NCBI RefSeq assembly: GCF_041320705.1
Contig: NZ_JBGGTQ010000008.1
Coordinates: 62,001 to 126,000, forward strand
From: Kineococcus mangrovi
GTDB lineage: Bacteria; Actinomycetota; Actinomycetes; Actinomycetales; Kineococcaceae
DNA: 64,000 nucleotides
Direction: 5' to 3'
Shown: piece after piece, positions 38,498-54,914 of the stretch
Layout of the letters: every line of letters starts with the position of its first letter
Numbering within the stretch: position 1 is the stretch's first letter
Position numbers and translations under genes: made by a program
The notes under the pieces: model-generated
Database searches by the model: none
The model's input: only the letters and a program-made list of their open reading frames with translations
What the model was told of the DNA's origin: nothing

Positions 38498-39136
38498 TCA
38501 GGCGCAGGAGCCGTCGAGCCAGCTCTGCAGGACCCGGCACAGCGGACGGAGTTCCTCGTCCAGCTCGGAGAGCTGCGCGCGTCCGGGGTTCTCGATCTGC
38601 AGCCAGCGGCGCAGCATCGCCACGTACCCGCCGTGGACGGCGCCGGCGATGCTCTGGGGCGCCACGCCCCGTGCCTCGAACCCGTGCCGCCGGGCCACGA
38701 ACGAGGCGACTCGGTCGCGCCACGCGGCCCACTGCTCGGACTCGCCCGAGCGCAACTCGGTGGACTCCTCCAGGACCCTGACGCGTTGCATCCAGAGCCC
38801 CTCCTCGTCGATGACCCGTTCCACCGCAGTGACGATGCTCGACCGGACGAGGTCCATCGTCGCGTCCGGGGAGGTCGCGACGGCGTCGAGCGCCTCCGCG
38901 AAACCCGCCGTGAACTCGTCGAAGCGCCACCAGATGATGGATCCCTTGGACGGGAAGTAGCGGAAGAAGCTCGTCTTGCTGACCCCGGCCGCCGCGGTGA
39001 TCTCCGCCAGCGTCGTCTCCTCGAACCCCCGCCGCAGGAAGAGTTCGATGGCGACGGTCTCGATCTCCTCGCGGGAGGAGGCGGGCGGGCGTCCACGGCG
39101 CGGGGCGGCGGTTGCTTCCACCGACTGCTCAGTCAC
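38498..39136 (-). CDS. TetR family transcriptional regulator
   Basis: The 212-residue protein has an N-terminal helix-turn-helix (IELFLRRGFEETTLAEITAAAGVSKTSFFRYFPSKG) and a ligand domain of the type seen in MftR-like members. Its GTG overlaps the stop of the triple-CheW gene by eight bases, so it is the last gene of the chemoreceptor operon. That is unusual for TetR and suggests feedback on, or a link to, that pathway. The ligand is unknown. Confidence 0.9.
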   Translation of the reverse strand: MTEQSVEATAAPRRGRPPASSREEIETVAIELFLRRGFEETTLAEITAAAGVSKTSFFRYFPSKGSIIWWRFDEFTAGFAEALDAVATSPDATMDLVRSSIVTAVERVIDEEGLWMQRVRVLEESTELRSGESEQWAAWRDRVASFVARRHGFEARGVAPQSIAGAVHGGYVAMLRRWLQIENPGRAQLSELDEELRPLCRVLQSWLDGSCA

Positions 39137-40631
39137 GGGTGACAGCGTGCCACAGCCCCGACTCCCGGGAGGGGGTTGTCGTGCCCGTCGTCACCCGGAC
39201 GAAGGGGTCGGCGAGAGCGTGCAGGTCGACGCACGCGAGCAACGGGCCGGTGGCCGAACTCGTCCGCACGAGCGGGGCGCGTTCCTCGGCCGCGGCCTCG
39301 TCCAGGTCCTCCCGCCAGACGGGCCGCTCGATGTCGGACAGTCCCTCGACGACCAGCCCGACCCGCCGCGGGGGACCGTCCGGGTCCCCGGCCGGGGGCC
39401 GGACCAGCAGGACGACGCCCGCGGTGGGGTCGGCGAGCCGGCCGCGCCCCAGGAGCTCGGCCAGGTCGACGAGCGGCACGACGTCGTGGGCGGTGACGAG
39501 GGCGCCGAGGTCGGAGCGCCCGCCGATCCACGGCACGGGGTCGGCCGGGAACGGCACCACCCCGTCGACCTGGTGCAGGGGAGCGGTGACGGTCCCGCGG
39601 GCCCGGAACAGGACGACGGGCTCCAGGAGCGGGTCCCCGGTGCCGGCCCGGTCGGTGGGCGCCGTGGCCGACCCCGAACCGGTGTTGAGCGACGTGAGGG
39701 CGCTGACCTCGGGGTCGGCGAGCAGCGCGGGGACGTCCAGGACGAACGCCGGCCCCTGCGGCAACCGGGCGACCCCCCGCACGACGGTGGCCGCCAGCCC
39801 GTGCGAGACCGGGGCGAGCGAGTGCGCCGACGGCGCCACGCGCACGATGTCGAGCGCCTCGGCGAAGACGAGGGCGAGCAGACCCCGGTCGGAACGGACG
39901 AGCAGGGCCTGCCAGGCGGCGGTGCGGTCCGCGGGCGGCAACCCCAGCAGGGCCAGCGGGTCGAGCACCGGCAGGCGGACGTCGCCGTGGTCGGTGACGC
40001 CCAGGCAGGACGCCGAGGACAGCTGCGACGGCCGGGGGGTCAGCGAGGGCAGGGTGGTCTGGACGTCGGCGACGTCGAGCGCCAGCAGGACGTCCGCGGT
40101 GCCGTCGGCCGAGGTGCAGCGCACGACGAGGTGGGCCGGGTCGAGCTCACCGCCACCGGTCCCCGCCGGCGGCGCCCCACCCCCGTCCCGGCTCGTCGTC
40201 ATGGCCAGGACGCCGGGGACGCCGAAGACGGCCGCCGGGTCCAGCAGGCTGCCCACCTCGCCCGTGCCCGGTCGCACGAACGCGGCCGTGAACAGGCGCT
40301 GGTCCCCGGCGGCGAGGGGCTGCAGCGCGGCGGTGTCCAGGGTGACGACGTCGTGCACGCTGTCGACGAGCAGCCCGAGGGCGCGGCCGTCGTGGACGAG
40401 GACGACGACCCCCATCGCCGCCTGCGTCGCCGGACCCGTGCCCGTCGTGCCGCTGAGCGCGGCGAGGTCGAGGACCGGCAGCACCGACTCCCGCAGGAGC
40501 ACCGCCCCCACGAGCCCCGGCGCGGCCGTCGGGAGGGCGTCGAAGCGTTCGGGCAGGGGGACGACCTCGCGCAGCACGTCGACGGGCAGGGCGACCAGGG
40601 CGCCCTGCACGCGCAGCAGCCCGACCTTCAC
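39129..40631 (-). CDS. Protein with three tandem CheW-like domains
   Basis: The 500-residue protein appears to be three CheW-type SH3-like modules in a row (about 1-145, 165-315, 335-480). They are recognised by repeated patterns such as [31 protein letters not shown] and [16 protein letters not shown], each followed by a V-x-LLV-D strand. CheW scaffolds link receptors to the CheA kinase. A three-domain version could cross-link several receptors. Its ATG overlaps the chemoreceptor stop (ATGA) and its stop overlaps a TetR start, making a three-gene operon. No CheA is in the window. Confidence 0.75.
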
Positions 40632-42691
40632 GACTCGGCGCCGGTCCTGGCCGCCAGGTCGGCGATGAGGGCGCGCACGACGGCGGAGGTGTCCTGCTGC
40701 AGCTGGGTGGCACCGGCGATCGTCGAGATCGACTCCGACGTCTGCGCGACGCTGCTCACGATGTTCTCGAACGCCTCCTGGGCGGCGCGGGAGACCTCGG
40801 CGCCCTCGGCGACGCGGGTCTCGGACTCGGCGATGAGCTCGGCGATCTGCCCGGCCGCGGTGGACGAGCGTTCCGCCAGCTTGCGGACCTCCCCGGCCAC
40901 GACGGAGAACCCCACCCCGTGCTCACCGGCCCGCGCGGCCTCGATCGAGGCGTTGAAGGCCAGCAGGTTCGTCTGCGCCGCGATCTCGGTGATGACGCGG
41001 ACGATCTCGGCGATCGACCCGGACGAGCGCCGGATGAGCTCGATCGCCGCCATCGAGCTCTTCAGCGCCTCGAACCCCGTCTGGGCGTCGCCGTGGGTCC
41101 GGGCGGCGAGGTCGCTGGCCTGCACGGCGTTGGTGGCGATGGAGTCGATGGAGTGCGACAGCTCGGCGACGGTCTCGGTCATCTCCCCGCTCTTGGCGGT
41201 GATGAGCTGTTCGAGCTGGGCCTGCGCCGTGACGTCGTCGGCGTACTTGATGACCTTGAACGGCCGGCCGCGCAGGTCGAACACGGGGTTGTACGTGGCC
41301 TGGATCCACACGTCCCGGTCGAACTTGCCGACCCGGTGGAACCGGCCCGCGATGAAGTCGCCCTTGCGCAACCGCAGCCAGAAGTCGCGGTACTCCGGCG
41401 AGACCCGGTACTCGGGCGAGCAGAACAGGCTGTGGTGCTGACCCTGCAGCTCCTTGAGCGAGTAGCCCATCGTCCGCAGGAAGTTCTCGTTGGCCGTGAG
41501 CACGTTGCCCTCGAGGTCGAACTCGATGACGGCCTGGGCACGGTCGACCGCCTGGACGCGACTGGCGAACTCCGCGTTCTCCACGGTGTTCTGCGTGACG
41601 TCCACGGCGTACTTGACGACCTTCAACGGTCGGCCCTCTGGGTCGAGGATCGGGTTGTACGTCGCCTGGATGAAGACGTCCGCCCCGGACTTGGTGATCC
41701 GGCGGTAGGTGCCCTCGTCGTAGTGCCCGCGCGCGAGCTTCTCCCAGAACCTCTGGTACTCCACCGACGCCGCGTCCTCGGGGTCGACGAACATCCGGTG
41801 GTGCTGGCCCACGACCTCGGCCTCGGAGTAGCCCAGCAGGGTGAGGAAGTTCTCGTTCACCGCGGTCACGGTGCCGTCGAGGGCGAACTCGATGACCGCC
41901 TGGGACCGGTCGATCGCCGCCACCCGCCCCTCCAGCTCCACGGCGCGCCGGGCGGCGCCGGTGACGTCGTAGGCGTACTTGATGACCTTGACGACCTTGC
42001 CGTCGGCGCCGAAGACGGGGTTGTAGGTGGCGCGGATGCGGATCTCCTGACCGCTGGCGCCGTAGCGGGTGAACTCCCCCGCCTCGGTGCTGCCGGCGCG
42101 CAGGCGGCGCCAGAACGCCGTGTAGTCCGGGCTCGCGGCGTAGGCCGGGTCGCAGAACGCGCGGTGGTGCTGCCCGACGATGTCGTCGGCCTCGTAGCCG
42201 AGGAGGTCCAGGGCGGTGTCGTTGGCCCGGAGCACGACGCCCTCGGGGGACAGCTCCACGACGACCTGGGAGCGTTCGACGGCGCGCGCCTTGCTGCGCA
42301 GGTCCCACAGCTCGGCGCGGGCGGTGCTCACGTCCGCCAGCAGCACGAGGGTCGCCCCGGTCCCGTCGATGCGCCGGGAGGTGCAGCGCGCCCAGCGCTC
42401 GCCCGCTGCGCCGTTGACGAGGGCCTCCAGGGCCTGGCTGCGGTCGCCGAGCAGTTCGGCCACGTCGCCGCCGGGCGGGGTGGTGAACAGGTCGGTCAGG
42501 CTCCGGCCCGTGAGCTCCTCGAAGGAGGAACCGAGCAGTTCGGTGGCCCGCGGGCACGCGTGCAGGACGGCGCCGCTGGTGGCGTCCACGACGAGGAAGG
42601 CCTCGCGCTCGGCCAGGAGCGCCGTGAGCGTCTGCTGCAGGGGGGCCGCCGACAGGTCGACGGGACGGACGGCGGTGGGGCGGGCGGTCAC
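40628..42691 (-). CDS. Soluble chemoreceptor with four PAS domains
   Basis: The 687-residue protein lacks membrane helices and HAMP. PAS1 (about 20-115) is divergent. PAS2-4 (about 135-490) are close repeats, each with a GYxxxEVVGQHH-type helix and an ATYNPVF...VIKYAxDVT C-terminal strand. The MA domain (about 500-687) has [21 protein letters not shown] at the tip. It should report an internal signal such as redox or oxygen via PAS cofactors, unproven. GTG 42691 lies 10 bases from a FliA-like -10 box, so the message may be nearly leaderless. Confidence 0.93.
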
Positions 42692-42754: not shown

Positions 42755-43324
42755 GTGGTGACTGACGGGCAGCGGACGACCTACGTCGTCGTCGACGGCG
42801 AGAACATCGACGCGACGCTGGGGGCCTCGATCCTCGAGGGCCGCCCCGGGCCCGAGCAGCGTCCCCGGTGGGAACGCCTGCTGAACTTCGCCCGCACCAC
42901 CTTCGACCAGCCCGCCAAGGGGCTGTTCTTCCTCAACGCCTCCAGCGGGCACCTGCCGATGTCCTTCGTGCAGGCGTTGCTGGCCCTGGGCTACCAGCCG
43001 ATCCCGCTCGCCGGGGGCCCGGGGGAGAAGGTCGTCGACATCGGCATCCAGCGCACGCTGGACGCGCTCGTCGAGCGCGAGGGCGACGTGCTCCTCGGCT
43101 CGCACGACGTGGACTTCCTGCCGCAGGTCGACCGCCTGCTGACCGGTGACCGGCTCGTCGGCATGGTCGGTTTCCGCGAGTTCATGAACTCCCAGTACGC
43201 CGGGCTGGCCGAACGCGGCCTGAAGGTGTTCGACCTCGAGGACGACGTCCGCGCGTTCAACGTCGTGCTGCCGCGCGTCCGGATCATCCCGCTGGCCGAC
43301 TTCGACCCGACGCGGTACCTCTGA
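42755..43324 (+). CDS. NYN domain (PIN-like) putative ribonuclease
   Basis: The 189-residue protein has the acidic pattern of NYN/LabA-type nucleases: [13 protein letters not shown] at the N-terminus, [15 protein letters not shown], and [17 protein letters not shown]. Such proteins cleave RNA with Mg2+. The target is unknown. Its last 41 bases overlap the end of the DNA ligase gene on the other strand. It is divergent from the chemoreceptor operon. Confidence 0.82.
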
Positions 43325-44840
43325 CGGTCTCGAGGGTGTCGGCGTCCGCGGCGGTCTTGTCGTCGCGGTAGCGCACGACGCGCGCGAACCGCAGGGCCAC
43401 CCCGCCGGGGTAGCGGGTCGAGCGCTGCAGCCCGTCGAACGCGACCTCCACGACCTGTTCGGGGCGGACGCGGACCACGTGCCCGTCCTCACCCACCTGC
43501 AGCTCGCGGAAGCGCTGCGTCTGCCACGCCAGCACCTCGTCCGTCATGCCCTTGAACGTCTTGCCCAGCATGACGAAACCGCCCGTCCCCGGGTCCCGGG
43601 CGCCGAGGTGGACGGTGGACAGCCACCCCGACCGGCGTCCCGAGCCGCGTTCGACGGCCAGCACGACGAGGTCGAGCGTGTGGACGGGTTTCACCTTGAC
43701 CCACGCCCCGCCGCGCCGGCCGGCCGCGTACGGCGAGGCCAGGTCCTTGACGACGACGCCCTCGTGCCCGGCGGCCACCGCCTCCCGCGAGAACGCGGTG
43801 GCGGCACCGGAGTCGGCCGTGACGAGGCGCGCGACGCGGTGCCGCTGCGGCACCAGGTCGTCCAGGACGTCCAGCCGCTCGCGCAGCGGCACGTCGAGCA
43901 GGTCGCGGCCACCGGCGTGCAGCACGTCGAAGAAGAACGGGGTGAGGACCGTCCCGACCCCCGCCGCCGTCGTCCGGGCCGTGCGGGAGGCCGTGTCCTG
44001 GAACGCCGCCGGTCGGCCGTCCTCGTCCAGCACGAGCACCTCGCCGTCGAGGACGACGTCGCCGCCGGGCAGCGCCTCGACGACCTCGACGACCTCGGGC
44101 AGCCGCGCGGTGACGTCCTCCAGCGTGCGGGTCGCGACGAGCACCCGACCGTCGCGGCGGTGCACCTGCACGCGGATCCCGTCGAGCTTGGTGTCGACGG
44201 CCACCGGACCCCCGCCCAGGCCGGTCAGGGCGTCGGCGACCGCCGTCGCGCTCGAGGCCAGCATCGGCAGCAGCGGACGACCGACCTCCAGCCCGAACCC
44301 CGCGAGCTCCGCCGCCCCTCCGTGCAGGGCCGCGACGACCGCCGCCACCGTCGAGCCGGCCAGCATCGCCGCGCGCCGCACGTCCGCGGCGGGTACGCCC
44401 GCGACGGCGGCCGCCGCGTCCTGCACGAGCGCGTCGAGCGCACCCTGCCGCAGCTCACCGGTGACGACGCCGCGCAGCCACCGCTGCTCCTGCGCTGTGG
44501 CGCGGCCGAGCAGGTCGGTGACCGCGGCCTCCCGGCGCCCCTTCGACCCGGTCCCGGTGAGCGCCGCGATCGCCTCGAACCGGGCGTGGACGTCGCGCAC
44601 CTGCAGGGAGGGCACCGCGGCCGCCGGCGGCGCGGACGCCATCGACCGCCAGCCCAGCCCCGTCCGGCGCTGCGGCAGGCTCCCGGCGAGGTAGCTGGCC
44701 ACGACTCCCGTCAGCTCCAGCCCCGCGGGGTCGCCCGGCTGCAGGCGGCGCAGCAGCGCGGCGAGCTCGGCGACCTTGCGCGTGCGCGCCCGGGTCGCGG
44801 CCACGGCGGCGGAGGTGGTGACGACGTCGGCGAGGAGCAC
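43284..44840 (-). CDS. ATP-dependent DNA ligase (LigB-type)
   Basis: The 518-residue ligase has an N-terminal DNA-binding domain (about 1-190), the adenylation motif [14 protein letters not shown] with the nucleotidyl Lys, motif III ([11 protein letters not shown]), motif IV (HEGVVVKD), and motif V ([19 protein letters not shown]). The OB domain follows. Actinobacteria use NAD-dependent LigA for replication, so this is a repair ligase. AGGA lies eight bases before GTG 44840. It diverges from the reverse transcriptase across a 213-base region that holds the candidate retron RNA. Confidence 0.93.
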
Positions 44841-44893
44841 CCGGCCATCCTGCCCATCCCCACCCGCGAGCGCCGTCCGTGTGCCAGGGTGGC

Positions 44894-45054
44894 CGGGTGC
44901 GGTGGCGCCGGGACGAGAGAGCTCATCCGAGCGGCTCCGGGGTTCCCCCGGGGACAGCACGTCACCTCCGGCACGACACCGCAGGATCCTGTGTGCGCTG
45001 CGCGCACGGTGGATCCCGCACCGCAGGACAGGTCGTCCCGGCCCACCGCACCCG
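44894..45054 (+). ncRNA. Candidate retron msr-msd RNA
   Basis: Bases 44894-44916 are complementary to 45033-45054: a 12-bp perfect stem (44894-44905 with 45043-45054), one bulged C (44906), then 10 bp (44907-44916 with 45033-45042). This matches the a1/a2 repeats that bound retron RNAs. The enclosed 116 bases include an AGC soon after a1 (44920-44922), whose G44921 could be the branching base, and a CCGGGG-TTC-CCCCGG hairpin (44937-44951). A second hairpin (44984-45016) has GGATCC arms around GTGCGC-TGC-GCGCAC and is flanked by 10-base direct repeats (44977, 45019). The reverse transcriptase begins at the end of a2. Expression and msDNA are untested. Confidence 0.6.
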
Positions 45055-46388
45055 TGCCTGACCGCCGGGGCGAGCCCGCCGACCCCGTCGCCGCGGCGCT
45101 CGCGGCGGCGTTCCTCGACGGCCCCTGGACGGTGGCCGACCTCGACCGGCGCGGTCGGTGGGCCGTGGGACGGCCCCGGGCGCGCTGGGTCCGGCAGCTC
45201 GCCGGGACCGTCCTGGAACGGTTCCCGCGTCCTCCGCTCGACGAACCCCGCGCGCTGCGGGCGTTCGTGGCGGGGTCCACCCCGTACGCGCGGGCCCGTG
45301 CCGCCGCGTCCGGAGCGGGCGAGCCCCTGCGGGTCGCGCACCTGGCCGCGACGACGACCGCGATGGGCCGCGACCGGTGGGGGGTGCCGGGTCTGGACAC
45401 CGTCGCCGACCTCGCCGCGTTCCTCGACCTCGACGACGCCCACCTGGACTGGTTCGCCGACCTGCACCGCTTCCAGGTCCGCGCCCCCGCCGGGCCGCTG
45501 CACCACTACCGGTCGCGGTGGGCCGGGAAACGGGGTGCCCCGCGGCTGCTCGAGGCGCCGCTGCCGCGGCTGAAGGTGGTGCAGCGCACGCTGCTGCACC
45601 GGGTGCTGGCCCGGTTCCCGGTGCACGACGCCGCGCACGGTTTCGTCCCGGGCCGGTCGGCGTTGACGGGGGCCTCGCAGCACGTGCGGGCCCGGACCGT
45701 CGTCCGCTTCGACCTGGAGGGGTTCTTCGCCGCCGTCCCGGCCGGGCGGGTCTTCGGGTTGTTCCGCCAGGGCGGGTACCCCGAACCCGTCGCGCACGCG
45801 CTGACGGGTCTGGTCACCCACGTCACCCCGCTGACGGTGCTGCGGGCCATGCCCGACGGTGGCTCGGGGGACGAGCGGCACCGGTTGCGCCGCAACCTGT
45901 CCCGGGCGCACCTGCCGCAGGGGGCGCCGACGTCACCGGCGCTGGCGAACCTGGTCGTGCTCGGGCTGGACCGTCGCCTGGCCGGCTGGGCGCGGGCCGG
46001 GGGCCTGACGTACACGCGCTACGCGGACGACCTGACGTTCTCCGCGGCCGACGGCCTCGACCCGCACCGGCTGCGACGGGCGGTGGTGGCGATCGCCGCC
46101 GACGAGGGGTTCCGGCTCAACGCGGCCAAGACGCGGGTGCGGGGGGCCGGGGCGCGCCAGCTCGTCACGGGCCTGGTCGTCAACGAGCGGCTCAACGTGC
46201 CGCGCGAGGAGTTCGACCGGCTCAAGGCCGTGCTGCACCACTGCGCGCAGCACGGCCCGGACGGTCAGGACCGGGAGGGCCACCCGGACTTCCGCGCCCA
46301 CCTGCTCGGCCGCATCGCCCGGGTGGAGGCCGTCAACCCCGCGAAGGGGCGGCGGCTGCGGGCGCGCTTCGACGCGATCGCCTGGTGA
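45054..46388 (+). CDS. Retron-type reverse transcriptase
   Basis: The 444-residue protein has an N-terminal helical extension (about 1-110) and a complete RT core. Motifs: LLEAPLPRLKVVQR; AHGFVPGRSALTGASQH (a variant of retron NAxxH at 206-210); RFDLEGFF with catalytic Asp220; LPQGAPTSPALANL (287-300); YADDLTFS with catalytic Asp325 and Asp326; LVTGLVVN (retron VTG, 371-373); and a C-terminal NPAKGRRLRARFDAI. No group II intron maturase domain, DGR elements or fused effector are present. The layout with a long N-terminal extension recalls myxobacterial retron RTs. GTG 45054 is the only sensible start; no clear ribosome binding site. The end overlaps a minus-strand DUF3817 gene by 56 bases. 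Confidence 0.9.
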   Translation: MPDRRGEPADPVAAALAAAFLDGPWTVADLDRRGRWAVGRPRARWVRQLAGTVLERFPRPPLDEPRALRAFVAGSTPYARARAAASGAGEPLRVAHLAATTTAMGRDRWGVPGLDTVADLAAFLDLDDAHLDWFADLHRFQVRAPAGPLHHYRSRWAGKRGAPRLLEAPLPRLKVVQRTLLHRVLARFPVHDAAHGFVPGRSALTGASQHVRARTVVRFDLEGFFAAVPAGRVFGLFRQGGYPEPVAHALTGLVTHVTPLTVLRAMPDGGSGDERHRLRRNLSRAHLPQGAPTSPALANLVVLGLDRRLAGWARAGGLTYTRYADDLTFSAADGLDPHRLRRAVVAIAADEGFRLNAAKTRVRGAGARQLVTGLVVNERLNVPREEFDRLKAVLHHCAQHGPDGQDREGHPDFRAHLLGRIARVEAVNPAKGRRLRARFDAIAW

Positions 46389-46769: not shown

Positions 46770-47801
46770 TCACCCGAGGACGACGCGGTCCCGTCCCGTC
46801 GCCTTGGCCGCGTACAGGGCCGCGTCGGCGCGCGAGAGCAGGGCCGAGAGGTCGAAGGGGCCAGGGCCGGTCGCGGCGACGCCGGCGCTCACGGTCACGG
46901 GTGCGCCGGCGGCCGTCGAGGCCTCGGCCACCCGGTCGCGGAACCGGTTGGCGGAACCGACCGCGGCGTGGACGTCGGGCCAACGCCCGATCCAGGCGAG
47001 TTCCTCGCCGCCGAGGCGCACCAGCACGTCGTCGGGCCGGGAACACTCTCGCAGGGCCTGGGCCACGACGACGAGGACGGCGTCGCCGACGTCGTGCCCG
47101 TGGCGGTCGTTGATGCTCTTGAAGTGGTCGATGTCGGCGACGACGGCGGTGACACCCTCCCCGCCCAGCCCGGTGCAGGCGTCCCGCAGACCGCGCCGGT
47201 TCAGCAGCCCCGTGAGGGCGTCGGTGCCGGCCGCCCGCGTGGTCGCTCGCAGGGCGCGCCGACGGCCGTGCTCGAGCCAGGCGATCACCCCCGTCGTCGC
47301 CACGCCCGCGGCGACGACGGTGCAGACGTCGGCGAGGAGTCGCGGTGTCGAGGTACCGCCGTCCACGGCGTGCAGGAGGACGGCCTGTCCGACGGCGGCC
47401 GGCAGGACGACGAACGGCAGGTGCCGGGTACGGGTCAGGAGAGCGGCCGCGGCGCACAGCGCCAGCAGTCCGACCGAGGCCGTCGTGACGTTGCCCGGCC
47501 TCGGTGGGGACAGACCGCTCAGGGTGAGGACCACGACGTCGAGCGCGAGGGCGACGGTGACGATCGGACGGGCGGCGCGACGGTCCCGGCGGGCGGCCCG
47601 CAGCGCGACGACGGCGAGCACGGACCACAGCACCGCGCTCGCGGCGACCGGCGCGAGAGCGTCGAGGCTCCGCGTCAGCACGGCGACCGCGAGACCGGGC
47701 AGGTGCAGCGCCGCGAAGACGCCGAAGGCGACGGCCTCGACGCGGCCGTCGCGCAGGTCGAGGTCAGGCACGAGGAGAACATCGACAGGCACCGGTCTCA
47801 C
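46770..47801 (-). CDS. Membrane GGDEF protein with GGEEL signature
   Basis: The 343-residue protein has about six membrane helices (20-180) and a GGDEF domain (185-343). The signature reads GGEEL in place of GGEEF, and RPDD five residues before it keeps the I-site. Metal and GTP residues (VVADIDHFKSINDRHGHDVGD) are present, so activity is possible but the last position is altered. It begins 18 bases after the GGDEF-EAL gene on the same strand, so the two form an operon. Confidence 0.85.
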   Translation of the reverse strand: MRPVPVDVLLVPDLDLRDGRVEAVAFGVFAALHLPGLAVAVLTRSLDALAPVAASAVLWSVLAVVALRAARRDRRAARPIVTVALALDVVVLTLSGLSPPRPGNVTTASVGLLALCAAAALLTRTRHLPFVVLPAAVGQAVLLHAVDGGTSTPRLLADVCTVVAAGVATTGVIAWLEHGRRRALRATTRAAGTDALTGLLNRRGLRDACTGLGGEGVTAVVADIDHFKSINDRHGHDVGDAVLVVVAQALRECSRPDDVLVRLGGEELAWIGRWPDVHAAVGSANRFRDRVAEASTAAGAPVTVSAGVAATGPGPFDLSALLSRADAALYAAKATGRDRVVLG

Positions 47802-47819
47802 CTTGATCGTTCCGACCCG

Positions 47820-50051
47820 TCAGCCCGCCAGCACCTCCTCGCCCGCGCGACCGGTGCGTCGCACGAACCCCGGCACGTCCGCCGCGGGCATCGCCGTCCC
47901 GAACAGGTGCCCCTGCGCCCGGCGCACGCCGAGGGCCCGCAGCGGGGCGACCTGGTCGGCGTGCTCGACGCCCTCGGCGAGGATCTGCACGTCCAGCGCC
48001 CGGCACAGCGCGGCGATGCCCTCCAGCAGCGCGGTGTCCCCGCCGGTCGCCAGCGTCGTCAGCGAGCGGTCCAGCTTCACCGTCGAGACGGGGAACCGGC
48101 GCATGTACGACAGCGACGTGTAGCCGATGCCGAAGTCGTCGAGGTCGAGCCGGAAACCCGCGGCGACGACCTCGCGCAGCGACGCCGCGATGCGGGGGTC
48201 GTCCGGCAGTTCCTCGTGCTCGGTGATCTCCAGGTGCACCCGGCCGGGGTCGATCCCGTGGCGGGCGGTCAGCTCCGAGATCCAGCGGGCCGTGCCCCGG
48301 CGGTGCAGGCTGCCGATGCCGAGGTTCACGGCCAGGTGGAGCCCGCCCGCGCCGGCCGCGTCCCAGCGGGCGAGGTCGCGCAGCGCCCGGCCGGTGACGT
48401 GCTCGTCCAGGCGCGCCCCCAACCCCGCGTCCTCGGCGTGCTGGAGGAACCGGTCGGGCAGCAGGAGCCCGCGGCGGGGGTGGTCCCAGCGCACGAGCGC
48501 CTCGACGCCGACGACGCGCGGGCCGCCCTCGCCCGCCAGGTCCACGACCGGCTGGTGCACGACGAGGAGCTCCCCGACGTCCTCCGGGCGGCCGCCCTGC
48601 AGCAGGAGGGACCTCAGCTCCTGCTGCACGACCAGAGCGCCGAGGACCTTCTCGCGCAGCTGCGGCCGGTAGACCAGGGCGCGTCCCTTGCCGGCCTGCT
48701 TCGCGGCGTACATCGCGACGTCGGCGTCGACGAGCGCCTCCTCGAAGGCCACGCCCGCGCGCAGCGGGGCGATCCCGATGCTCGCGCTCACCCGGTAGGG
48801 CAACCGGTCGGGCTCGAAGGGCGCGTCGAGCGCCTCCAGCACGAGGTCGGCCGGGCCGCCGTGGTGGTCCTCGGCGGTCCACACGACGACGATGAACTCG
48901 TCCCCGCCGGTGCGGGACACGACCCCGTGGCGCCCCACCGCCCGGCGCAACCGGTTCGAGACCTCGACGAGCAGCGCGTCGCCGACGGCGTGCCCGCGCG
49001 TGTCGTTGATCTGCTTGAAGTCGTCGAGGTCCACGAGGCACAGGTGCAGGTCCCGGCCGTGCAGCCGTCGTCGCAGGTCCTCCGCCGCCCCGGGCAGCCC
49101 GCGGCGGTTCACCAGGTCGGTGAGCGGGTCGCGCTCGGCGCTGCGCTCGGCCCGCCGCACCGCGAGCGCGGCCCAACCGACGCCCGCGCAGGCCAGGACG
49201 TACCCGCTGGGTGCGACCACCTCGACGGCCACGTCCGGCAGCACGTGCACGCTGCCGAGCAGCCACAGCGCCGGCACGGTGCAGAACACCGGCAGCACGC
49301 TCAGCAGCCGCTGCCCGTCACCGCGCAGCGCACCACCCGCGCAGGGGGTGCCGACGTGGCGCATGCTCGGGTGCAGGGCGGCCGCGGCCAGCAGCACCAC
49401 CGCCAGGCTCTGGGTGGCGTGCAGCACGTGCCCGCCACCGCCGAGCAGGTCGGGGCGGGCGGTGACGAGCGCCGCCACGGCCAGCAGCAGCCCCGCCGCC
49501 AGCAGCACGAGGACCGTGGCGGGGGCCGTGCCCGTGCGGGTCGTGAGGATCCGCAGCAGGACGATGGCCAGCACGATGTCGGCGGCCGTCCCGACGAGCA
49601 CGGCCGGGTCGCGGCCCAGGCCGGTCTCGTGCAGCATCCCGAGCACCTGCGCGACGACGAGCGCCCCCGCGCACGCGGTGAGGACGACGTCGGGCCACGT
49701 GCGGCGGCCGGGCACCCGGGCCTGGCGCAGCGTGCGGACCACGAAGGGCACGAGGGCGAGGGCGACCACCTGCACGGCGACGACGCCCCACCGGGCCCAC
49801 GACGTGCCCGGACCGGTGAGCAGGCACCCCGCCGTCGCCGCCGTCGCGGCGAGGACGAGGGCCAGGACGGCCCCCCACGCCTGCGGCAGCACCGGGCGGT
49901 GCCGGCGGATCCCGAGGACCGTCAGCGCGAGGGCGCCCACGTCGACGACGAGCGCGACGACGGTCCCCGCGCCACCGGTGGCGACGGGCAGCGCCACGAG
50001 GAGGCCGAGGACGGCCAGCGCCGCCAGCGCCGCCACGTCGCGCCTGGTCAT
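47820..50051 (-). CDS. Membrane GGDEF-EAL protein
   Basis: The 743-residue protein has nine or ten membrane helices (about 5-310), GGDEF (about 320-475) with an intact TGGDEF but no I-site, and EAL (about 490-735). EAL residues are VEALVRWDHP, AVNLG, LEITEHE, LDLDDFGIGYTS, VKLDRS and LAEGVE. Both activities are plausible. ATG 50051 has GGGGAGGG just upstream. A weaker FliA-like site lies 50 bases further. The GGEEL cyclase gene follows in the same operon. Confidence 0.92.
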   Translation of the reverse strand: MTRRDVAALAALAVLGLLVALPVATGGAGTVVALVVDVGALALTVLGIRRHRPVLPQAWGAVLALVLAATAATAGCLLTGPGTSWARWGVVAVQVVALALVPFVVRTLRQARVPGRRTWPDVVLTACAGALVVAQVLGMLHETGLGRDPAVLVGTAADIVLAIVLLRILTTRTGTAPATVLVLLAAGLLLAVAALVTARPDLLGGGGHVLHATQSLAVVLLAAAALHPSMRHVGTPCAGGALRGDGQRLLSVLPVFCTVPALWLLGSVHVLPDVAVEVVAPSGYVLACAGVGWAALAVRRAERSAERDPLTDLVNRRGLPGAAEDLRRRLHGRDLHLCLVDLDDFKQINDTRGHAVGDALLVEVSNRLRRAVGRHGVVSRTGGDEFIVVVWTAEDHHGGPADLVLEALDAPFEPDRLPYRVSASIGIAPLRAGVAFEEALVDADVAMYAAKQAGKGRALVYRPQLREKVLGALVVQQELRSLLLQGGRPEDVGELLVVHQPVVDLAGEGGPRVVGVEALVRWDHPRRGLLLPDRFLQHAEDAGLGARLDEHVTGRALRDLARWDAAGAGGLHLAVNLGIGSLHRRGTARWISELTARHGIDPGRVHLEITEHEELPDDPRIAASLREVVAAGFRLDLDDFGIGYTSLSYMRRFPVSTVKLDRSLTTLATGGDTALLEGIAALCRALDVQILAEGVEHADQVAPLRALGVRRAQGHLFGTAMPAADVPGFVRRTGRAGEEVLAG

Positions 50052-50100
50052 GGCCCTCCCCGTGCTCCGTGGTCCGTGGGGAGATCCCCGCCGTCGGTGC

Positions 50101-50128
50101 TTCGGCGCGAACGGGTGTGGACTTGTTC
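50101..50128 (-). promoter_or_regulatory. Weak FliA-like site upstream of the GGDEF-EAL operon
   Basis: On the minus strand GAACAAG (about 50128-50122) is followed after 15 bases by GCCGAA (50106-50101). The -10 matches fully, but the -35 differs from CTCAAG at two positions. It is 50 bases upstream of the ATG. Lower confidence than the other three sites. Confidence 0.35.
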
Positions 50129-50187
50129 GCCCGATCAGGGGGCGGTGCGGCTGGAACAGCGGTGCCCCGGGCACGGTTGGCGACCCC

Positions 50188-51042
50188 ATGAGCGTGATCA
50201 GTCTGTGGGGCGGCGGCCCGTGGCAGGACCCGTCGAGGGCCGAGGAGGCGAGGGAGGTCGCGGCCGAGGTCGAGGAGCTGGGCTACCACCGCCTGTGGTT
50301 CTCCGGCGGTTTCGAGCCCGGTGTCCTGCCCGCCTTCGGGGAACTGCTCGACGCGACCCGCACCCTCGGGGTCGCCAGCGGCATCGTCAGCATCTGGACG
50401 GCCACCCCCGACCAGTCCGCGGAGGCGTTCGCGCGCCTGGAGGCCGAGCACCCGGGGCGGTTCCTGCTGGGGCTGGGCAACTCCCACGCCCCGGCGGTCG
50501 AGGGGCAGGGGCAGCGGTACGACAAGCCGTACACGCGCACGGTCGAGTACCTCGACGCGCTCGGCGACCGGGTCCCGTCCGAGCGGGTGGTCCTGGCCGC
50601 GCTCGGGCCGAGGATGCTGGAGCTGGCCCGCGACCGGACCGCGGGGGCGCACCCCTACTTCGTGACGGTCGAGCACACCGTCGCCGCCCGCGCGGCGCTG
50701 GGCGCGGGGTCGTGGCTGGCCCCCGAGGCGGCCGTCGTCCTGGACGAGGACCCCGCCACCGCGCGGGCCACGGCCCGCGAGCACCTGGCGACGTACCTCG
50801 CGCTGCCGAACTACACGAACAACCTCCGCCGCTACGGCTGGGGCGACGACGACCTGCTGCACGGCGGCAGCGACCGCCTCGTCGACGAGCTCGTCGCCTG
50901 GGGGTCGCTGGACCAGGTGGTCGCCGGGGTGCGCCGGCACGTCGACGCGGGGGCCGACGAGGTGGCGCTGCAGGTGCTGGGCGGGCGCGGCGGGTTCCCG
51001 CGCGCGGCGTTCCGGGAGCTGGCGGGGGCGTTGTCGGGCTGA
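50188..51042 (+). CDS. LLM class (F420-type, TIGR03620-like) oxidoreductase
   Basis: The 284-residue luciferase-like protein has LGYHRLWFSGG near the N-terminus and FLLGLGNSHAPAVEGQGQRYDKP. This is the pattern of a small actinobacterial LLM subfamily predicted to use coenzyme F420. The substrate is unknown. The upstream bases ACCCC before the ATG are not a good ribosome binding site, so the message may be leaderless. It is divergent from the GGDEF-EAL operon. Confidence 0.8.
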   Translation: MSVISLWGGGPWQDPSRAEEAREVAAEVEELGYHRLWFSGGFEPGVLPAFGELLDATRTLGVASGIVSIWTATPDQSAEAFARLEAEHPGRFLLGLGNSHAPAVEGQGQRYDKPYTRTVEYLDALGDRVPSERVVLAALGPRMLELARDRTAGAHPYFVTVEHTVAARAALGAGSWLAPEAAVVLDEDPATARATAREHLATYLALPNYTNNLRRYGWGDDDLLHGGSDRLVDELVAWGSLDQVVAGVRRHVDAGADEVALQVLGGRGGFPRAAFRELAGALSG

Positions 51043-51892
51043 GCGCCCACCTCCCGGTGCGGTGCCAGGTCGTGGTGGGCAGGAGGACACGCTCTCCTGC
51101 ACCTCCACGACCCGGCGGCGCGGCGCCGGTCGACGGTTCACGGCACCTCCTGCACCGCTGACGTGCGCCCGGGGACCGTCCAGAGGAGCCGCGGAGCGCT
51201 TCCCGGCTCCGGCTCTGCTCAGCGGTCGTCACGGCTCTCGTCCTGATCCGGCTGGACGACCGACACCGGTGGAGCCCCGGCAGCAGTACCGACGGGGAGC
51301 GCGCGAGCTCCGCGTCCGGGCGAGGGGGACGAGCCTCCCCCTCCGCGTCGCTGCTCGGGCTGTCCGGGCGAAACCCGTGTTCCTCGATCTGCCGGCTGGT
51401 GGGCGCGCTTCCCGTCCGGAGGAGGTGATCGCGAGAGTTCGACCGGGGTGCGCACCACCGGTCCGGGATCGTTACCCCATCGAGACCCCGAATCCGTTCC
51501 GGTGGTCAATGAACTCCGATAGCCCTGCAGGGCAAAACGATCGCTGTCGAACCGAGCTGTGGACGAGACCTGTCGATCTGGACGGCCACCTCCTCGCGAG
51601 GGTGAGCTCGCAGCACCGGTGCGGTGCCGGCTCGAGATCTCGGTTACGGTCGACGCGACCTGATGGACGGAGAAGCGCGCCGCTCAGCGGTGCATGAAGA
51701 GGTTCACACCGAGAGCCCTTCTCGTCGTCTTCTTGTGCCCTGGACCGAGTGGTCCAGCGGTGTGCGGTGGGGTCGGCCGGGACTCGCGGCCGAGCATCGT
51801 GTTCGCAGCGCCGAGACACCGGCGTGCGACCGGGGGTCGAGGTCGTTCCGCCGCGCGTCGTCGTGGGTTCGAGGAGGATGAGGAGGTCGCCT
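51043..51892. other. 850-base non-coding region before the betaine ABC operon
   Basis: No convincing gene. Open frames exist, but they have weak starts and unusual codon use. The base composition is less GC-rich than the surroundings, notably about 51460-51560. A hairpin GAGGGGGA/TCCCCCTC lies at 51322-51343, and an AGGAGG at 51418-51427 leads into a frame without protein-like content. The size and composition suggest a long regulatory leader for the osmoprotectant importer, or a decayed gene. I recognise no riboswitch. Confidence 0.45.
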
Positions 51893-52987
51893 GTGCCGGA
51901 CGTGCACGCGCGAGGACTGTTCAAGGTGTTCGGCAGGAAGCCCGAGGAGGCCGTCCAGCGGTTGCGGGACGGGGCCACGGCCGCCGAGCTGCGGGCCGAG
52001 GGGATCTCGGCCGCGGTCGTCGACGTCGATCTCGACGTCGCTCCGGGCGAGATCTTCGTCGTCATGGGGTTGTCCGGATCGGGCAAGTCCACGCTCATCC
52101 GCATGCTCAACGGGCTGCTCAGGCCCAGCGCCGGCACCGTGGAGATCGACGGCCAGGACATCACGGCCCTCGACGAGACCGGTCTGCGGCGAGTGCGGCA
52201 GGACACCATGAGCATGGTCTTCCAGCACTTCGCGCTCCTGCCGCACCGCACCGCCCTCGACAACGCCGCGTACGCCCTCGAGCTGCGGGGTGTCCCGACG
52301 CAGGAACGCCGCGCCACCGCCGCCCGGGCACTGCGGCGCGTCGGCCTGGGCGGCTGGGAGGACCGCTACCCCGGTGACCTGTCCGGCGGGATGCAGCAGC
52401 GCGTCGGTCTGGCCCGTGCGCTGGCCGCCGGTACGGACCTGCTGCTGATGGACGAGGCGTTCAGCGCCCTCGACCCGCTGATCCGTCGCGAGATGCAGGA
52501 CGAGCTGCTCACCCTGCAGGAGGAACTCGGGCAGACCATCGTCTTCATCACCCACGACCTCAACGAGGCCATGCGCCTGGGCGACAGGGTGATGGTCATG
52601 CGCGACGGGCGCAGCGTCCAGGTGGGCACGCCGCAGGAGATCCTCCTCGATCCCGTCGATTCGTACGTCGCCCAGTTCCTGGCCGACGTCGACCGGGCCC
52701 GCGTCCTCACGGCTGCTGACGTCAGCAGGAGAACCGGTCGCGGCGACGGTGCGGACGCCGTCCCGTCCAGCGCCCCCGTGGGCCGGGTCAGCGCCGACAC
52801 CCCGCTGGCCGACCTGCTCGAACCCATGGCCGCCACCGGTGCCCCCATCACCGTCGTCGACGAGGCCGGCAACCCGCAGGGGTTCGTGGAGACCGCGGAC
52901 GTCCTCGGTGCCCTGAGCGCCGCGACCGCCCCCCCGACCGGGGAGAGCCCCCGGGCCGCAGCGGAGAAGGAGGATGCCCGTGCGTGA
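51893..52987 (+). CDS. Glycine betaine/proline-type ABC transporter ATPase
   Basis: The 364-residue ProV/OpuAA-type ATPase has Walker A (GLSGSGKST), the Q-loop, the signature LSGGMQQRVGLARAL, Walker B (LLLMDEAFSALDP) and the His switch (THDLNEAMRLGD). A short CBS-like C-terminus (SADTPLADLLEPM) may sense ionic strength, as in OpuA. AGGAGG lies six bases before GTG 51893; an upstream ATG (51878) is too close to its own Shine-Dalgarno. It powers osmoprotectant uptake and overlaps the permease gene. Confidence 0.93.
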   Translation: MPDVHARGLFKVFGRKPEEAVQRLRDGATAAELRAEGISAAVVDVDLDVAPGEIFVVMGLSGSGKSTLIRMLNGLLRPSAGTVEIDGQDITALDETGLRRVRQDTMSMVFQHFALLPHRTALDNAAYALELRGVPTQERRATAARALRRVGLGGWEDRYPGDLSGGMQQRVGLARALAAGTDLLLMDEAFSALDPLIRREMQDELLTLQEELGQTIVFITHDLNEAMRLGDRVMVMRDGRSVQVGTPQEILLDPVDSYVAQFLADVDRARVLTAADVSRRTGRGDGADAVPSSAPVGRVSADTPLADLLEPMAATGAPITVVDEAGNPQGFVETADVLGALSAATAPPTGESPRAAAEKEDARA

Positions 52988-53903
52988 CCTGTTCCCCGTC
53001 CCCCGACTGCTCGTCGGGGACACCTTCGACGTCGCCTTCGACTGGATCACGACCCACCTGGCGTGGTTGTTCGACGCGATCGCCTGGGTGACCGGGGGGG
53101 CCACGGAGCTGTTGACCGACGCGCTGGCCTGGCCGCCGCCGGTCGTCCTGGCGCTGGCGCTGGCGATCCTGGGGGTGCTGCTGCGTTCGGTGACCTTCGG
53201 TGTCGTCTCCTTCGCCGGTCTGCTCCTGGTCATCAGCATGGAGCTGTGGACCGAGGCGATGGAAACCCTCGCCCTGGTGCTGACCGCCACCATCGCCGCG
53301 ACGGTGATCGCTGTTCCCGTGGGGATCCTCGCCGCCCGGTACGACCGGTTCAGCACCGTTCTCCGGCCCGTCCTGGACTTCATGCAGACGATGCCCGCGT
53401 TCGTCTACCTCGTCCCGGCCGTCACCCTCTTCAGCATCGGCACCGTCCCGGGCGTGGTGGTCACCATCATCTTCGCGATGCCTCCCGGGGTCCGCCTCAA
53501 CGAACTCGGCATCCGCCAGGTCGACGCGGAGGTCGTCGAGGCCGGCAACGCGTTCGGCGGGTCCCCGCGGCAGATCCTGCGCGGCATCCAGTTGCCCCTG
53601 GCCCTGCCGACGATCATGGCCGGCGTCAACCAGGTGATCATGCTGGCCCTGTCCATGGCCGTCATCGCCGGCCTCATCGGCGCCAACGGGCTCGGGTCCA
53701 CCGTGACCACCGCCATCTCCCGCCTGAACGTCGGCCTGGGGGTCGAGGCCGGTCTCTCGGTCGTCGTCATCGCCATCTACCTGGACCGGATCACCGGCGC
53801 CCTCGGCACCGACGGCGGTCTGCTGCGCGCCCTGCGCCGGCGGGGAGCGGCCGGGACCTCCAGGGTCACGCGGTCGGCGGCGAAAGAACCCGCCGGCGTC
53901 TGA
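52980..53903 (+). CDS. Glycine betaine/proline-type ABC transporter permease
   Basis: The 307-residue ProW/OpuAB-type permease has about six or seven membrane helices. It carries the inner-membrane coupling loop EAGNAFGGSPRQILRGIQLPLALPTIMAG, and DFMQTMPAFVYLVP. AAGGAGG lies six bases before GTG 52980. An ATG two codons earlier abuts the Shine-Dalgarno and is less likely. It overlaps the ATPase gene by eight bases. Confidence 0.92.
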   Translation: MRDLFPVPRLLVGDTFDVAFDWITTHLAWLFDAIAWVTGGATELLTDALAWPPPVVLALALAILGVLLRSVTFGVVSFAGLLLVISMELWTEAMETLALVLTATIAATVIAVPVGILAARYDRFSTVLRPVLDFMQTMPAFVYLVPAVTLFSIGTVPGVVVTIIFAMPPGVRLNELGIRQVDAEVVEAGNAFGGSPRQILRGIQLPLALPTIMAGVNQVIMLALSMAVIAGLIGANGLGSTVTTAISRLNVGLGVEAGLSVVVIAIYLDRITGALGTDGGLLRALRRRGAAGTSRVTRSAAKEPAGV

Positions 53904-53948
53904 ACCGCTCGTCCAGCACCAGAACCCGTATCGACAGGAAGAGATCTC

Positions 53949-54914
53949 GTGACCCAGAAGACAGTGTCCCGCGCCACCTTCGGCCGTCTGAGCGTCGGTC
54001 TCGCAGCAGCCGGGGTGGTGGCGGCGTGCTCCGGTGAGTCGGCCACCAACTCGGCCGGGAGCAGCCAGGCCAGCACCAGCGACGACGTCCGCACCGTCAA
54101 CCTGGGGTTCCTCCCCGGGTGGACCGACGGTCTGAGCACCGCCTACCTCTGGAAGAACCTCCTCGAGGGTGAGGGGTACGCCGTGGAGTTCACGGAACTC
54201 TCCGACGCCGCCCCGTTGTACACGGCGCTCGCTCAGGGCGACGTGGACGTCTACCCCTCGGGCTGGCCGCAGGTGACCCACCAGGACTACATGAACCAGT
54301 ACGGCGACCAGATCGAGGACCTCGGTGCCTGGTACGAGGGGGCCGTCCTGACCCTGGTCGTCCCGGAGTACACCGACGTCGACTCGATCGACCAGCTCGC
54401 CGGGCAGGGAGCTCGTTTCGGTGGCCGGATCGTCGGGATCGAACCCGGCGCGGGTTTGACCCGCATCACCCGCGAACAGGCCATGCCCGAGACCTACGAG
54501 GACGCCGACGGCGACGAGCAGCAGGGGTACGGCCTGGAGGGTGAGTACGAGCTCGTCACCTCCTCGACCGCCGCCATGCTCGCGGAACTGCAGTCGGCCA
54601 CCGATGCCCAGCAGGACATCGTCGTGACCCTGTGGCGCCCGTTCTGGGCCAACACCTCCTTCCCGGTGAAGGACCTCGCCGACCCCCGGGGCGCGATGGG
54701 GCAGGCCGAGACGCTGAACTCCCTGGCCCGACAGGGGTTCGCCGAGGACATGCCCGACGTGGCGGACATGATGTCGAACTTCACCTTGACCGACGAGCAG
54801 TACGGCACGCTCGAGGACACGGTCGTGAACGAGTACGGCGAGGGCCGCTACGACGAGGGCGTGCAGGCCTGGCTCGACCAGAACCCGGACTTCCGGGAGA
54901 GCCTGAGGAGCTGA
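53949..54914 (+). CDS. Glycine betaine/proline-type substrate-binding lipoprotein
   Basis: The 321-residue lipoprotein has a signal peptide with lipobox VAAC (about 24-27). The OpuAC-type fold shows VNLGFLPGWTDGLSTAYLWKN, YPSGWPQVTH and VVTLWRPFWANTSF, supplying the tryptophans that form the cage for a quaternary ammonium. It follows the permease by 45 bases with GGAAGAG before the GTG. The set of ATPase, permease and binding protein makes a complete importer. Confidence 0.92.
   Translation: MTQKTVSRATFGRLSVGLAAAGVVAACSGESATNSAGSSQASTSDDVRTVNLGFLPGWTDGLSTAYLWKNLLEGEGYAVEFTELSDAAPLYTALAQGDVDVYPSGWPQVTHQDYMNQYGDQIEDLGAWYEGAVLTLVVPEYTDVDSIDQLAGQGARFGGRIVGIEPGAGLTRITREQAMPETYEDADGDEQQGYGLEGEYELVTSSTAAMLAELQSATDAQQDIVVTLWRPFWANTSFPVKDLADPRGAMGQAETLNSLARQGFAEDMPDVADMMSNFTLTDEQYGTLEDTVVNEYGEGRYDEGVQAWLDQNPDFRESLRS

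What the first reader, a model, noticed from the sequence alone, without database searches (positions are those of the whole stretch)
44894..46388. Candidate retron: reverse transcriptase with an upstream msr-msd-like RNA
The RT at 45054-46388 has YADD, VTG and a TGASQH variant of the retron NAxxH motif. The 161 bases directly before it are bounded by a 22-bp inverted repeat with a single bulge (44894-44916 with 45033-45054), and enclose an early AGC, a small hairpin and a 33-base hairpin (44984-45016). This is the a1-msr-msd-a2-RT order of retrons. The boundary repeat is far longer than expected by chance in 213 bases. Retron identity of the RT rests on known motifs; the RNA call is from pairing seen in the sequence.
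Basis: partly seen in the sequence, partly recalled or inferred. Interest (0 to 1): 0.92.

Follow-up and report, generated by a model that had tools for sequence, protein, structure and literature searches.

The report
Retron without a recognisable partner toxin
This actinobacterial chromosome very probably carries a genuine retron, a reverse transcriptase with its own structured template RNA just upstream; it belongs to a widespread chromosomal group for which no shared partner toxin gene was found and whose purpose is still unknown.

Summary
The 22-bp, one-bulge arms 44894-44916/45033-45054 are exact (0 of 300 shuffles and 0 of 200 other window stretches reach 22). The RNA they enclose covaries (score 0.308 against 0.121 shuffled, 0 of 500). 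A covariance model from 11 loci finds it upstream of the RT in 76 of 88 fetched loci, 65 of them unseen. In the host genus, RNA and RT occur in the same 6 of 11 genomes. The arms abut an AG kept in 71 of 76 RNAs, and the preceding pair is G-C in 47 and A-U in 24. The RT is PADLOC RT_other/RT_outgroup; its AF2 model matches 18 solved retron RT chains first. It has a five-helix N-terminal domain without a significant PDB match. No neighbour gene recurs across families; lineage-specific ones exist. No phage record matches, and no Rfam family reaches threshold. msDNA synthesis and function were not testable here.

The parts
44894..44916 (+). arm a1 of the retron RNA (22 pairs with a2, one bulged C)
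   Evidence: Exact complement to 45033-45054; in alignment A1 of 11 sequences the outer helix pairs in 92.3% of cells with 5 pairs changed on both sides.
44917..44917 (+). predicted 2'-5' priming guanosine, in CGAGA (inferred)
   Evidence: G in 73 of 76 RNAs; AG at 44916-44917 in 71 of 76; neighbouring pair 44915:45034 is G-C in 47 and A-T in 24. Simon 2019 (PMC6868368, passages): the arm contains or ends just before the priming G; known contexts TAGC, CAGC, CAGA, GAGC, ACGC.
44921..44932 (+). small msr stem
   Evidence: 3 pairs, all 3 changed on both sides in at least one sequence, 97.0% of cells paired.
44935..44953 (+). msr hairpin, CTCCGGGG/CCCCGGGG, the most conserved element
   Evidence: 8 pairs, 97.7% of cells paired, 7 of the 8 invariant in A1.
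   Evidence: 13 pairs in two helices, 98.7% and 97.0% of cells paired, 5 pairs with changes on both sides; e.g. one pair is AU 3, CG 3, GC 2, UA 2.
44960..45032 (+). approximate reverse-transcribed stretch (msd); first template base 45032; the 3' limit of the DNA (about 44960-44975) is a guess
   Evidence: Inference from the a1/a2 end and the msd stem; possible cDNA printed; no experiment.
45033..45054 (+). arm a2 of the retron RNA; its last base is the first base of the RT start codon
   Evidence: covariation.
45054..46388 (+). retron-type reverse transcriptase, 444 aa, GTG start
   Evidence: PADLOC RT_other 8.8e-168, RT_outgroup 2.4e-159; Pfam RVT_1 2.7e-18; AF2 mean pLDDT 95.0, Foldseek ranks 1-18 all retron RTs.
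45075..45317 (+). five-helix N-terminal domain, residues about 8-88
   Evidence: Helices 11-21, 27-38, 44-56, 65-74, 76-87; no PDB match with E <= 0.001 for residues 1-109.
45666..45683 (+). region X motif TGASQH (variant of NAxxH)
   Evidence: the histidine (H210) is invariant in the 48 aligned relatives.
46020..46031 (+). YADD catalytic motif
   Evidence: Invariant in the 48 aligned relatives.
46164..46172 (+). VTG, start of region Y
   Evidence: definition of region Y from PMC6868368 passages.

Best explanation
This is a chromosomal retron of the PADLOC RT_other/RT_outgroup class. The precursor RNA 44894-45054 folds so that a1 pairs with a2 and leaves G44917 beside the end of the duplex. 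The RT, made from the next gene, binds the msr, uses the 2'-OH of G44917 as primer, and copies leftward from G45032 through the msd stem, giving a branched RNA-DNA molecule (msDNA) with roughly 60-70 nt of DNA. Shown here: the RNA is real, non-coding in at least part of its relatives, structurally conserved and coupled to this RT clade. Inferred from known retrons: priming, msDNA synthesis and msDNA length. No neighbour gene was found that could be a shared effector, so the functional unit is probably RNA plus RT, with the fused five-helix domain as the likeliest built-in interaction module; what the complex does (phage sensing or another chromosomal role) is open.
For: Exact 22-bp arms, 0 of 300 shuffles. 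Covariation: 95.7% of cells paired, 33-52% when slid by 1-3 columns; score 0.308 against 0.121, 0 of 500 shuffles. Model R1 hits 76 of 88 loci upstream of the RT, E from 2.9e-30 to 0.0013, 65 of the 77 loci not used in building. Genus: RNA and RT in the same 6 of 11 genomes, RNA in none of the 5 genomes without RT. Priming position kept and compensated: AG in 71 of 76; G-C 47, A-U 24. In-frame stop between the RNA's 5' end and the RT start in 36 of 74 loci, so the RNA region is not simply coding there. RT: PADLOC, AF2/Foldseek, tree in which all 47 RNA-positive rows fall in one clade of 51 rows, support 100/99.
Against: No RNA or DNA product was observed. 12 of 88 loci gave no R1 hit with default filters; with filters off three of four retested gave weak hits upstream of the RT (E 3.7e-4, 9.8e-4, 0.046) and L077, inside the RT clade, gave none there on the + strand. 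A search of 296 phylum genomes with R1 found only the own genome, though that mode scored few candidates per genome. The RT lacks the N of NAxxH. No effector was found, unlike the well-studied defence retrons.
Confidence: 0.88

Rival explanations
1. A tripartite defence retron whose effector is encoded elsewhere in the genome or differs between lineages, so that neighbourhood analysis misses it.
For: Known retrons are described as RT + RNA + effector (abstract of PMC12548924). Local neighbours recur within lineages: a pentapeptide-repeat gene starting -24 to +23 from the RT stop in 3 loci (L038, L039, L043), and an ORF group just downstream of the RT in 7 Burkholderia loci, one member of which (L050) carries an H-NS C-terminal domain.
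Against: Among 126 neighbouring ORFs of 44 loci no Pfam family occurs in more than 6 proteins and no PADLOC family in more than 4; the window's neighbours are a DNA ligase and DUF3817.
Confidence: 0.3
2. The RNA is a structured regulatory leader of the RT mRNA (attenuator or autoregulatory element) rather than an RT template.
For: It directly precedes the start codon, and in the window a2 covers it.
Against: The arms end beside an invariant AG with compensatory change, as retron priming demands; the RT is of the retron group; RNA presence follows one RT clade across phyla.
Confidence: 0.07
3. The upstream repeat is a chance palindrome in GC-rich DNA and the RT is a stray retron-like enzyme.
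For: The window is GC-rich and long spurious ORFs abound.
Confidence: 0.01

Closest known systems
PADLOC retron RT classes RT_other (PDLC02949) and RT_outgroup (PDLC03740)
   Same: Best profile matches, 557.4 and 528.9 bits, nearly full length; same top class for five further RTs scanned (L010, L050, L047, L033, L077) and for L133 and L134.
   Different: The profiles carry no functional description in this library beyond 'retron'; whether their authors described a cognate RNA could not be checked (Mestre 2020 not held).
Myxobacterial retrons Mxa1 (Mx162) and Mxa2 (Mx65)
   Same: Extended N-terminus; priming contexts CAGC and GAGC rather than TAGC; Mxa2 also lacks the N of NAxxH (PMC6868368 passages). 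Mx162-like (L155, 485 aa) and Mx65-like (L150, 427 aa, TGAAPH) RTs from one unnamed myxobacterial genome are 40.6% and 40.7% identical to the window RT over 350 and 332 columns. The names rest on recalled lengths and sequence features.
   Different: They fall outside the RNA-positive clade; the Mx162-like RT scores best with RT_XIII; model R1 gives no significant hit upstream of either. The predicted msd here is much shorter than 162 nt.
Retron Eco1 (Ec86), solved structure 7v9x/7v9u
   Same: Best PDB match by sequence (2.9e-33) and by fold (E 8.4e-22, TM 0.80 by target length).
   Different: Ec86 lacks the five-helix N-terminal domain; 7v9x shows Ec86 with a separate effector, none of which is recognisable here.

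Membership tests
retron | RT of the retron group with QGAPTSP-type, YADD and VTG motifs | tested here: met
retron | region X motif NAxxH | tested here: inconclusive
   TGASQH: A and H kept, N replaced; RT-Mxa2 and RT-Eco6 also replace N (PMC6868368 passages).
retron | structured msr-msd RNA upstream of the RT, bounded by complementary a1/a2 | tested here: met
retron | priming G at the inner end of the a1/a2 duplex, usually in AGC | tested here: inconclusive
   AG kept at the duplex end in 71 of 76, following base C in 25, A in 26, G in 19; use as primer is untested.
retron | production of branched msDNA with a 2'-5' bond | not testable with these tools
   Needs nucleic acid extraction and sequencing.
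defence retron (tripartite, with effector) | effector gene linked to or fused with the RT | tested here: inconclusive
   No gene recurring across families within 1 upstream and 2 downstream ORFs of 44 loci; local ones in two lineages; the N-terminal domain matches no solved fold significantly. Gene calls were rough.
PADLOC retron type XIII | RT best matched by RT_XIII | tested here: not met
   298.8 bits against 557.4 for RT_other.
group II intron or DGR RT | closest to those RT groups | tested here: not met
   Retron profiles and structures rank first; group II intron RT first appears at Foldseek rank 19 and a DGR RT at 26; TIGR04416 49.6 bits, cut-off 300.

The most novel reading that the evidence does not exclude
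The RT_other/RT_outgroup RTs and this RNA form one ancient, mostly chromosomal retron type found in at least six bacterial phyla, in which the effector function is not a separate gene but lies in the fused five-helix N-terminal domain or in a host protein, so that it acts as a resident chromosomal msDNA system rather than a mobile defence cassette.
Probability: 0.35. Interest if true: 0.7.

Novelty: new member of a known kind. Interest (0 to 1): 0.5.

Why it matters
It gives a defined, testable RNA (a1, priming G, msd stem, a2) for a large class of retron RTs that a current defence library files only as 'other' or 'outgroup', and for which no Rfam family reached threshold in the window. Because no shared effector is visible and the family is nearly absent from the phage and plasmid records searched (0 of 50,697 at E <= 1e-30; 4 of 72,556 at E <= 1e-50), it bears on the old question of what chromosomal msDNA does. 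A five-helix domain with no solved relative marks where to look.

Tried and rejected
Effector search: all-against-all BLAST of ORFs of 90 residues or more in the fetched loci. Only the first 33 or so clusters with at least 3 loci were printed. The largest spanned 15 loci at scattered positions and on both strands; most others were confined to Burkholderia or to the host genus. Pfam and PADLOC scans of 126 neighbour ORFs (GC3-based rough gene calls, 1 upstream and up to 2 downstream in 44 loci, long ones cut to 500 aa) found nothing recurrent. A directed look just behind the RT found two lineage-bound neighbours.

RT start further upstream: the frame is open upstream in the window, but in-frame stops lie between the RNA's 5' end and the RT start in 36 of 74 loci. 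Note that my start codons were chosen with the RNA end as a limit, so RNA-to-start distances (57 of 76 within 0-60 nt) are not independent.

Rfam: no match at gathering threshold; two chance-level matches at E <= 5 in 44800-45100. Sigma-70-type promoter and terminator scan: nothing. R1 over 296 phylum genomes: only the own genome, with a prefilter that scored 9 candidates per genome in the listed rows, so it is insensitive. R1 also gave weak minus-strand mirror hits at its own loci (L010 E 4.1e-4; L011, L079 about 1e-3; L047, L058 0.06-0.13); other off-target hits had E 0.3 or more.

Literature: seven searches listed no paper that I recognised as describing this RNA; the two papers most likely to (Mestre 2020, the 2024 retron census) are not held, so absence from print is not claimed.

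Full report
What is in the sequence. Between a divergent ATP-dependent DNA ligase gene (minus strand, start codon at 44838-44840) and a convergent DUF3817 gene lies a 444-aa RT (GTG 45054 to TGA 46388). The stretch 44886-45060 folds with z = -5.38.

The RNA is conserved and covaries. Eleven loci (six from the host genus including the window's own, two Kineosporia, three Microbacterium) align over 198 columns. RNAalifold gives 42 pairs, 15 of them with changes on both sides in at least one sequence. Counted against controls, 95.7% of cells are paired (33.3-51.9% with partners slid by 1-3 columns), and the covariation score is 0.308 against a shuffled mean of 0.121, 0 of 500. The msd stem changes its letters and keeps its pairs, whereas 7 of the 8 pairs of the msr hairpin 44935-44953 do not vary in these 11 sequences.

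It travels with the RT. A covariance model from those 11 (R1) was run on the window and 89 loci. It matched 76 of the 88 RT loci L001-L088 upstream of the RT, 75 at E <= 0.001 and one (L030) at 0.0013; 65 of the 76 were not used in building. The 12 misses were L008 (a weak partial RT match), L065 (44 bases before the RT match), L068, L070, L075, L077, L080, L081 and L085-L088. With filters off, L068, L070 and L075 gave weak hits upstream of the RT (E 3.7e-4, 9.8e-4, 0.046) and L077 gave none there on the plus strand. Of the other misses, L080, L085, L086 and L088 have RTs whose best PADLOC profile is RT_XIII rather than RT_other; L081 and L087 were not scanned. In 26 loci from a myxobacterial family R1 was significant in two, L133 and L134, whose RTs are RT_other; a third, L146, scored E 0.029. 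In the host genus R1 hits the same 6 of 11 genomes that hold the RT and none of the other 5.

Likely priming site. In the 76 RNAs, aligned to the model, the base at 44917 is G in 73, AG stands at 44916-44917 in 71, and the pair 44915:45034 is G-C in 47 and A-U in 24, a compensatory change absent from the 11 training sequences. Published retrons prime from a G at the inner end of this duplex, in TAGC, CAGC, CAGA, GAGC or ACGC (PMC6868368, passages). I therefore infer G44917 (in CGAGA) as priming G, with copying from 45032.

The RT. PADLOC: RT_other 557.4 bits, RT_outgroup 528.9, next RT_XIII 298.8. NCBIfam retron families match below their cut-offs. The AF2 model (48 sequences, mean pLDDT 95.0, pTM 0.89) matches 18 solved retron RT chains before the first group II intron RT; best is Ec86. 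A tree of 60 RTs puts all 47 RNA-positive rows in one clade of 51 rows (100/99), apart from Mx162-like, Mx65-like and Ec86 rows; several deep forks are weak, and the Ec86 row is long and partial. The first 88 residues form five helices without a PDB match at E <= 0.001 when modelled alone.

Setting. In all 6 RT-bearing genomes of the genus the RT abuts DUF3817, and in 4 of 6 the ligase lies on the other side. In two genomes without RT (G005, G007) the two genes are neighbours, 217 and 93 bases apart, with no RT or RNA between them; the other three could not be judged this way. This suits inheritance with loss, or an old insertion. No phage record matched (0 of 50,697 at E <= 1e-30), 4 of 72,556 plasmid records did, and the best 80 of 371 relatives in viral contigs reached at most 39% identity, none aligned before query residue 67.

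Partner genes. Among 126 neighbour ORFs from 44 loci no Pfam family occurs in more than 6 and no PADLOC family in more than 4. Lineage-bound exceptions: a pentapeptide-repeat gene starting at the RT stop in L038, L039 and L043 (the domain was scanned in the first two), and an ORF group behind the RT in seven Burkholderia loci, of which one scanned member has an H-NS C-terminal domain. The window's own neighbours are housekeeping or signalling genes.

Verdict. Retron anatomy is shown by sequence; msDNA and function are inferred. I judge it a new member of a known kind: the RT class is already in a defence library, while its RNA matched no Rfam family. Whether others have described this RNA I could not check, since the key surveys are not held. 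Papers seen as passages only: PMC6868368, PMC12548924, PMC4244168, PMC8934634, PMC8867640.

Noticed in passing
window 45054: The RT start codon overlaps the last base of arm a2, so folding of the RNA could hide the translation start; in most relatives the start lies somewhat further downstream.
   Followed up: partly
L038 6008-6613, L039 5969-6559, L043 downstream of RT: A pentapeptide-repeat gene begins within -24 to +23 bases of the RT stop in three Pseudonocardiaceae loci; possible local retron partner (domain scanned in L038 and L039).
   Followed up: partly
L050, L052, L054, L057, L059, L063, L067 just behind the RT: Related ORFs lie directly downstream of the RT in seven Burkholderia loci; the L050 member carries an H-NS C-terminal domain.
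   Followed up: partly
L133, L150, L155 (unnamed myxobacterial genome G371): One genome holds three different retron-type RTs: RT_other with an R1-type RNA, an Mx65-like and an Mx162-like one (the two names rest on recall).
   Followed up: partly
window 46333-46388: The DUF3817 reading frame (minus strand) runs on to a stop at about 46333, overlapping the RT 3' end convergently.
   Followed up: no
window 39132-42601 and 46773-50189: Signalling genes flank the locus: a CheW-like triple-domain protein, a PAS-MCP protein, a GGDEF protein and a GGDEF-EAL protein.
   Followed up: no
window 42755-43321: A 189-aa ORF beside the ligase matches no Pfam family.
   Followed up: no
window 51749-54911: An ABC ATPase, permease and OpuAC binding protein, a likely glycine betaine uptake operon.
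   Followed up: no
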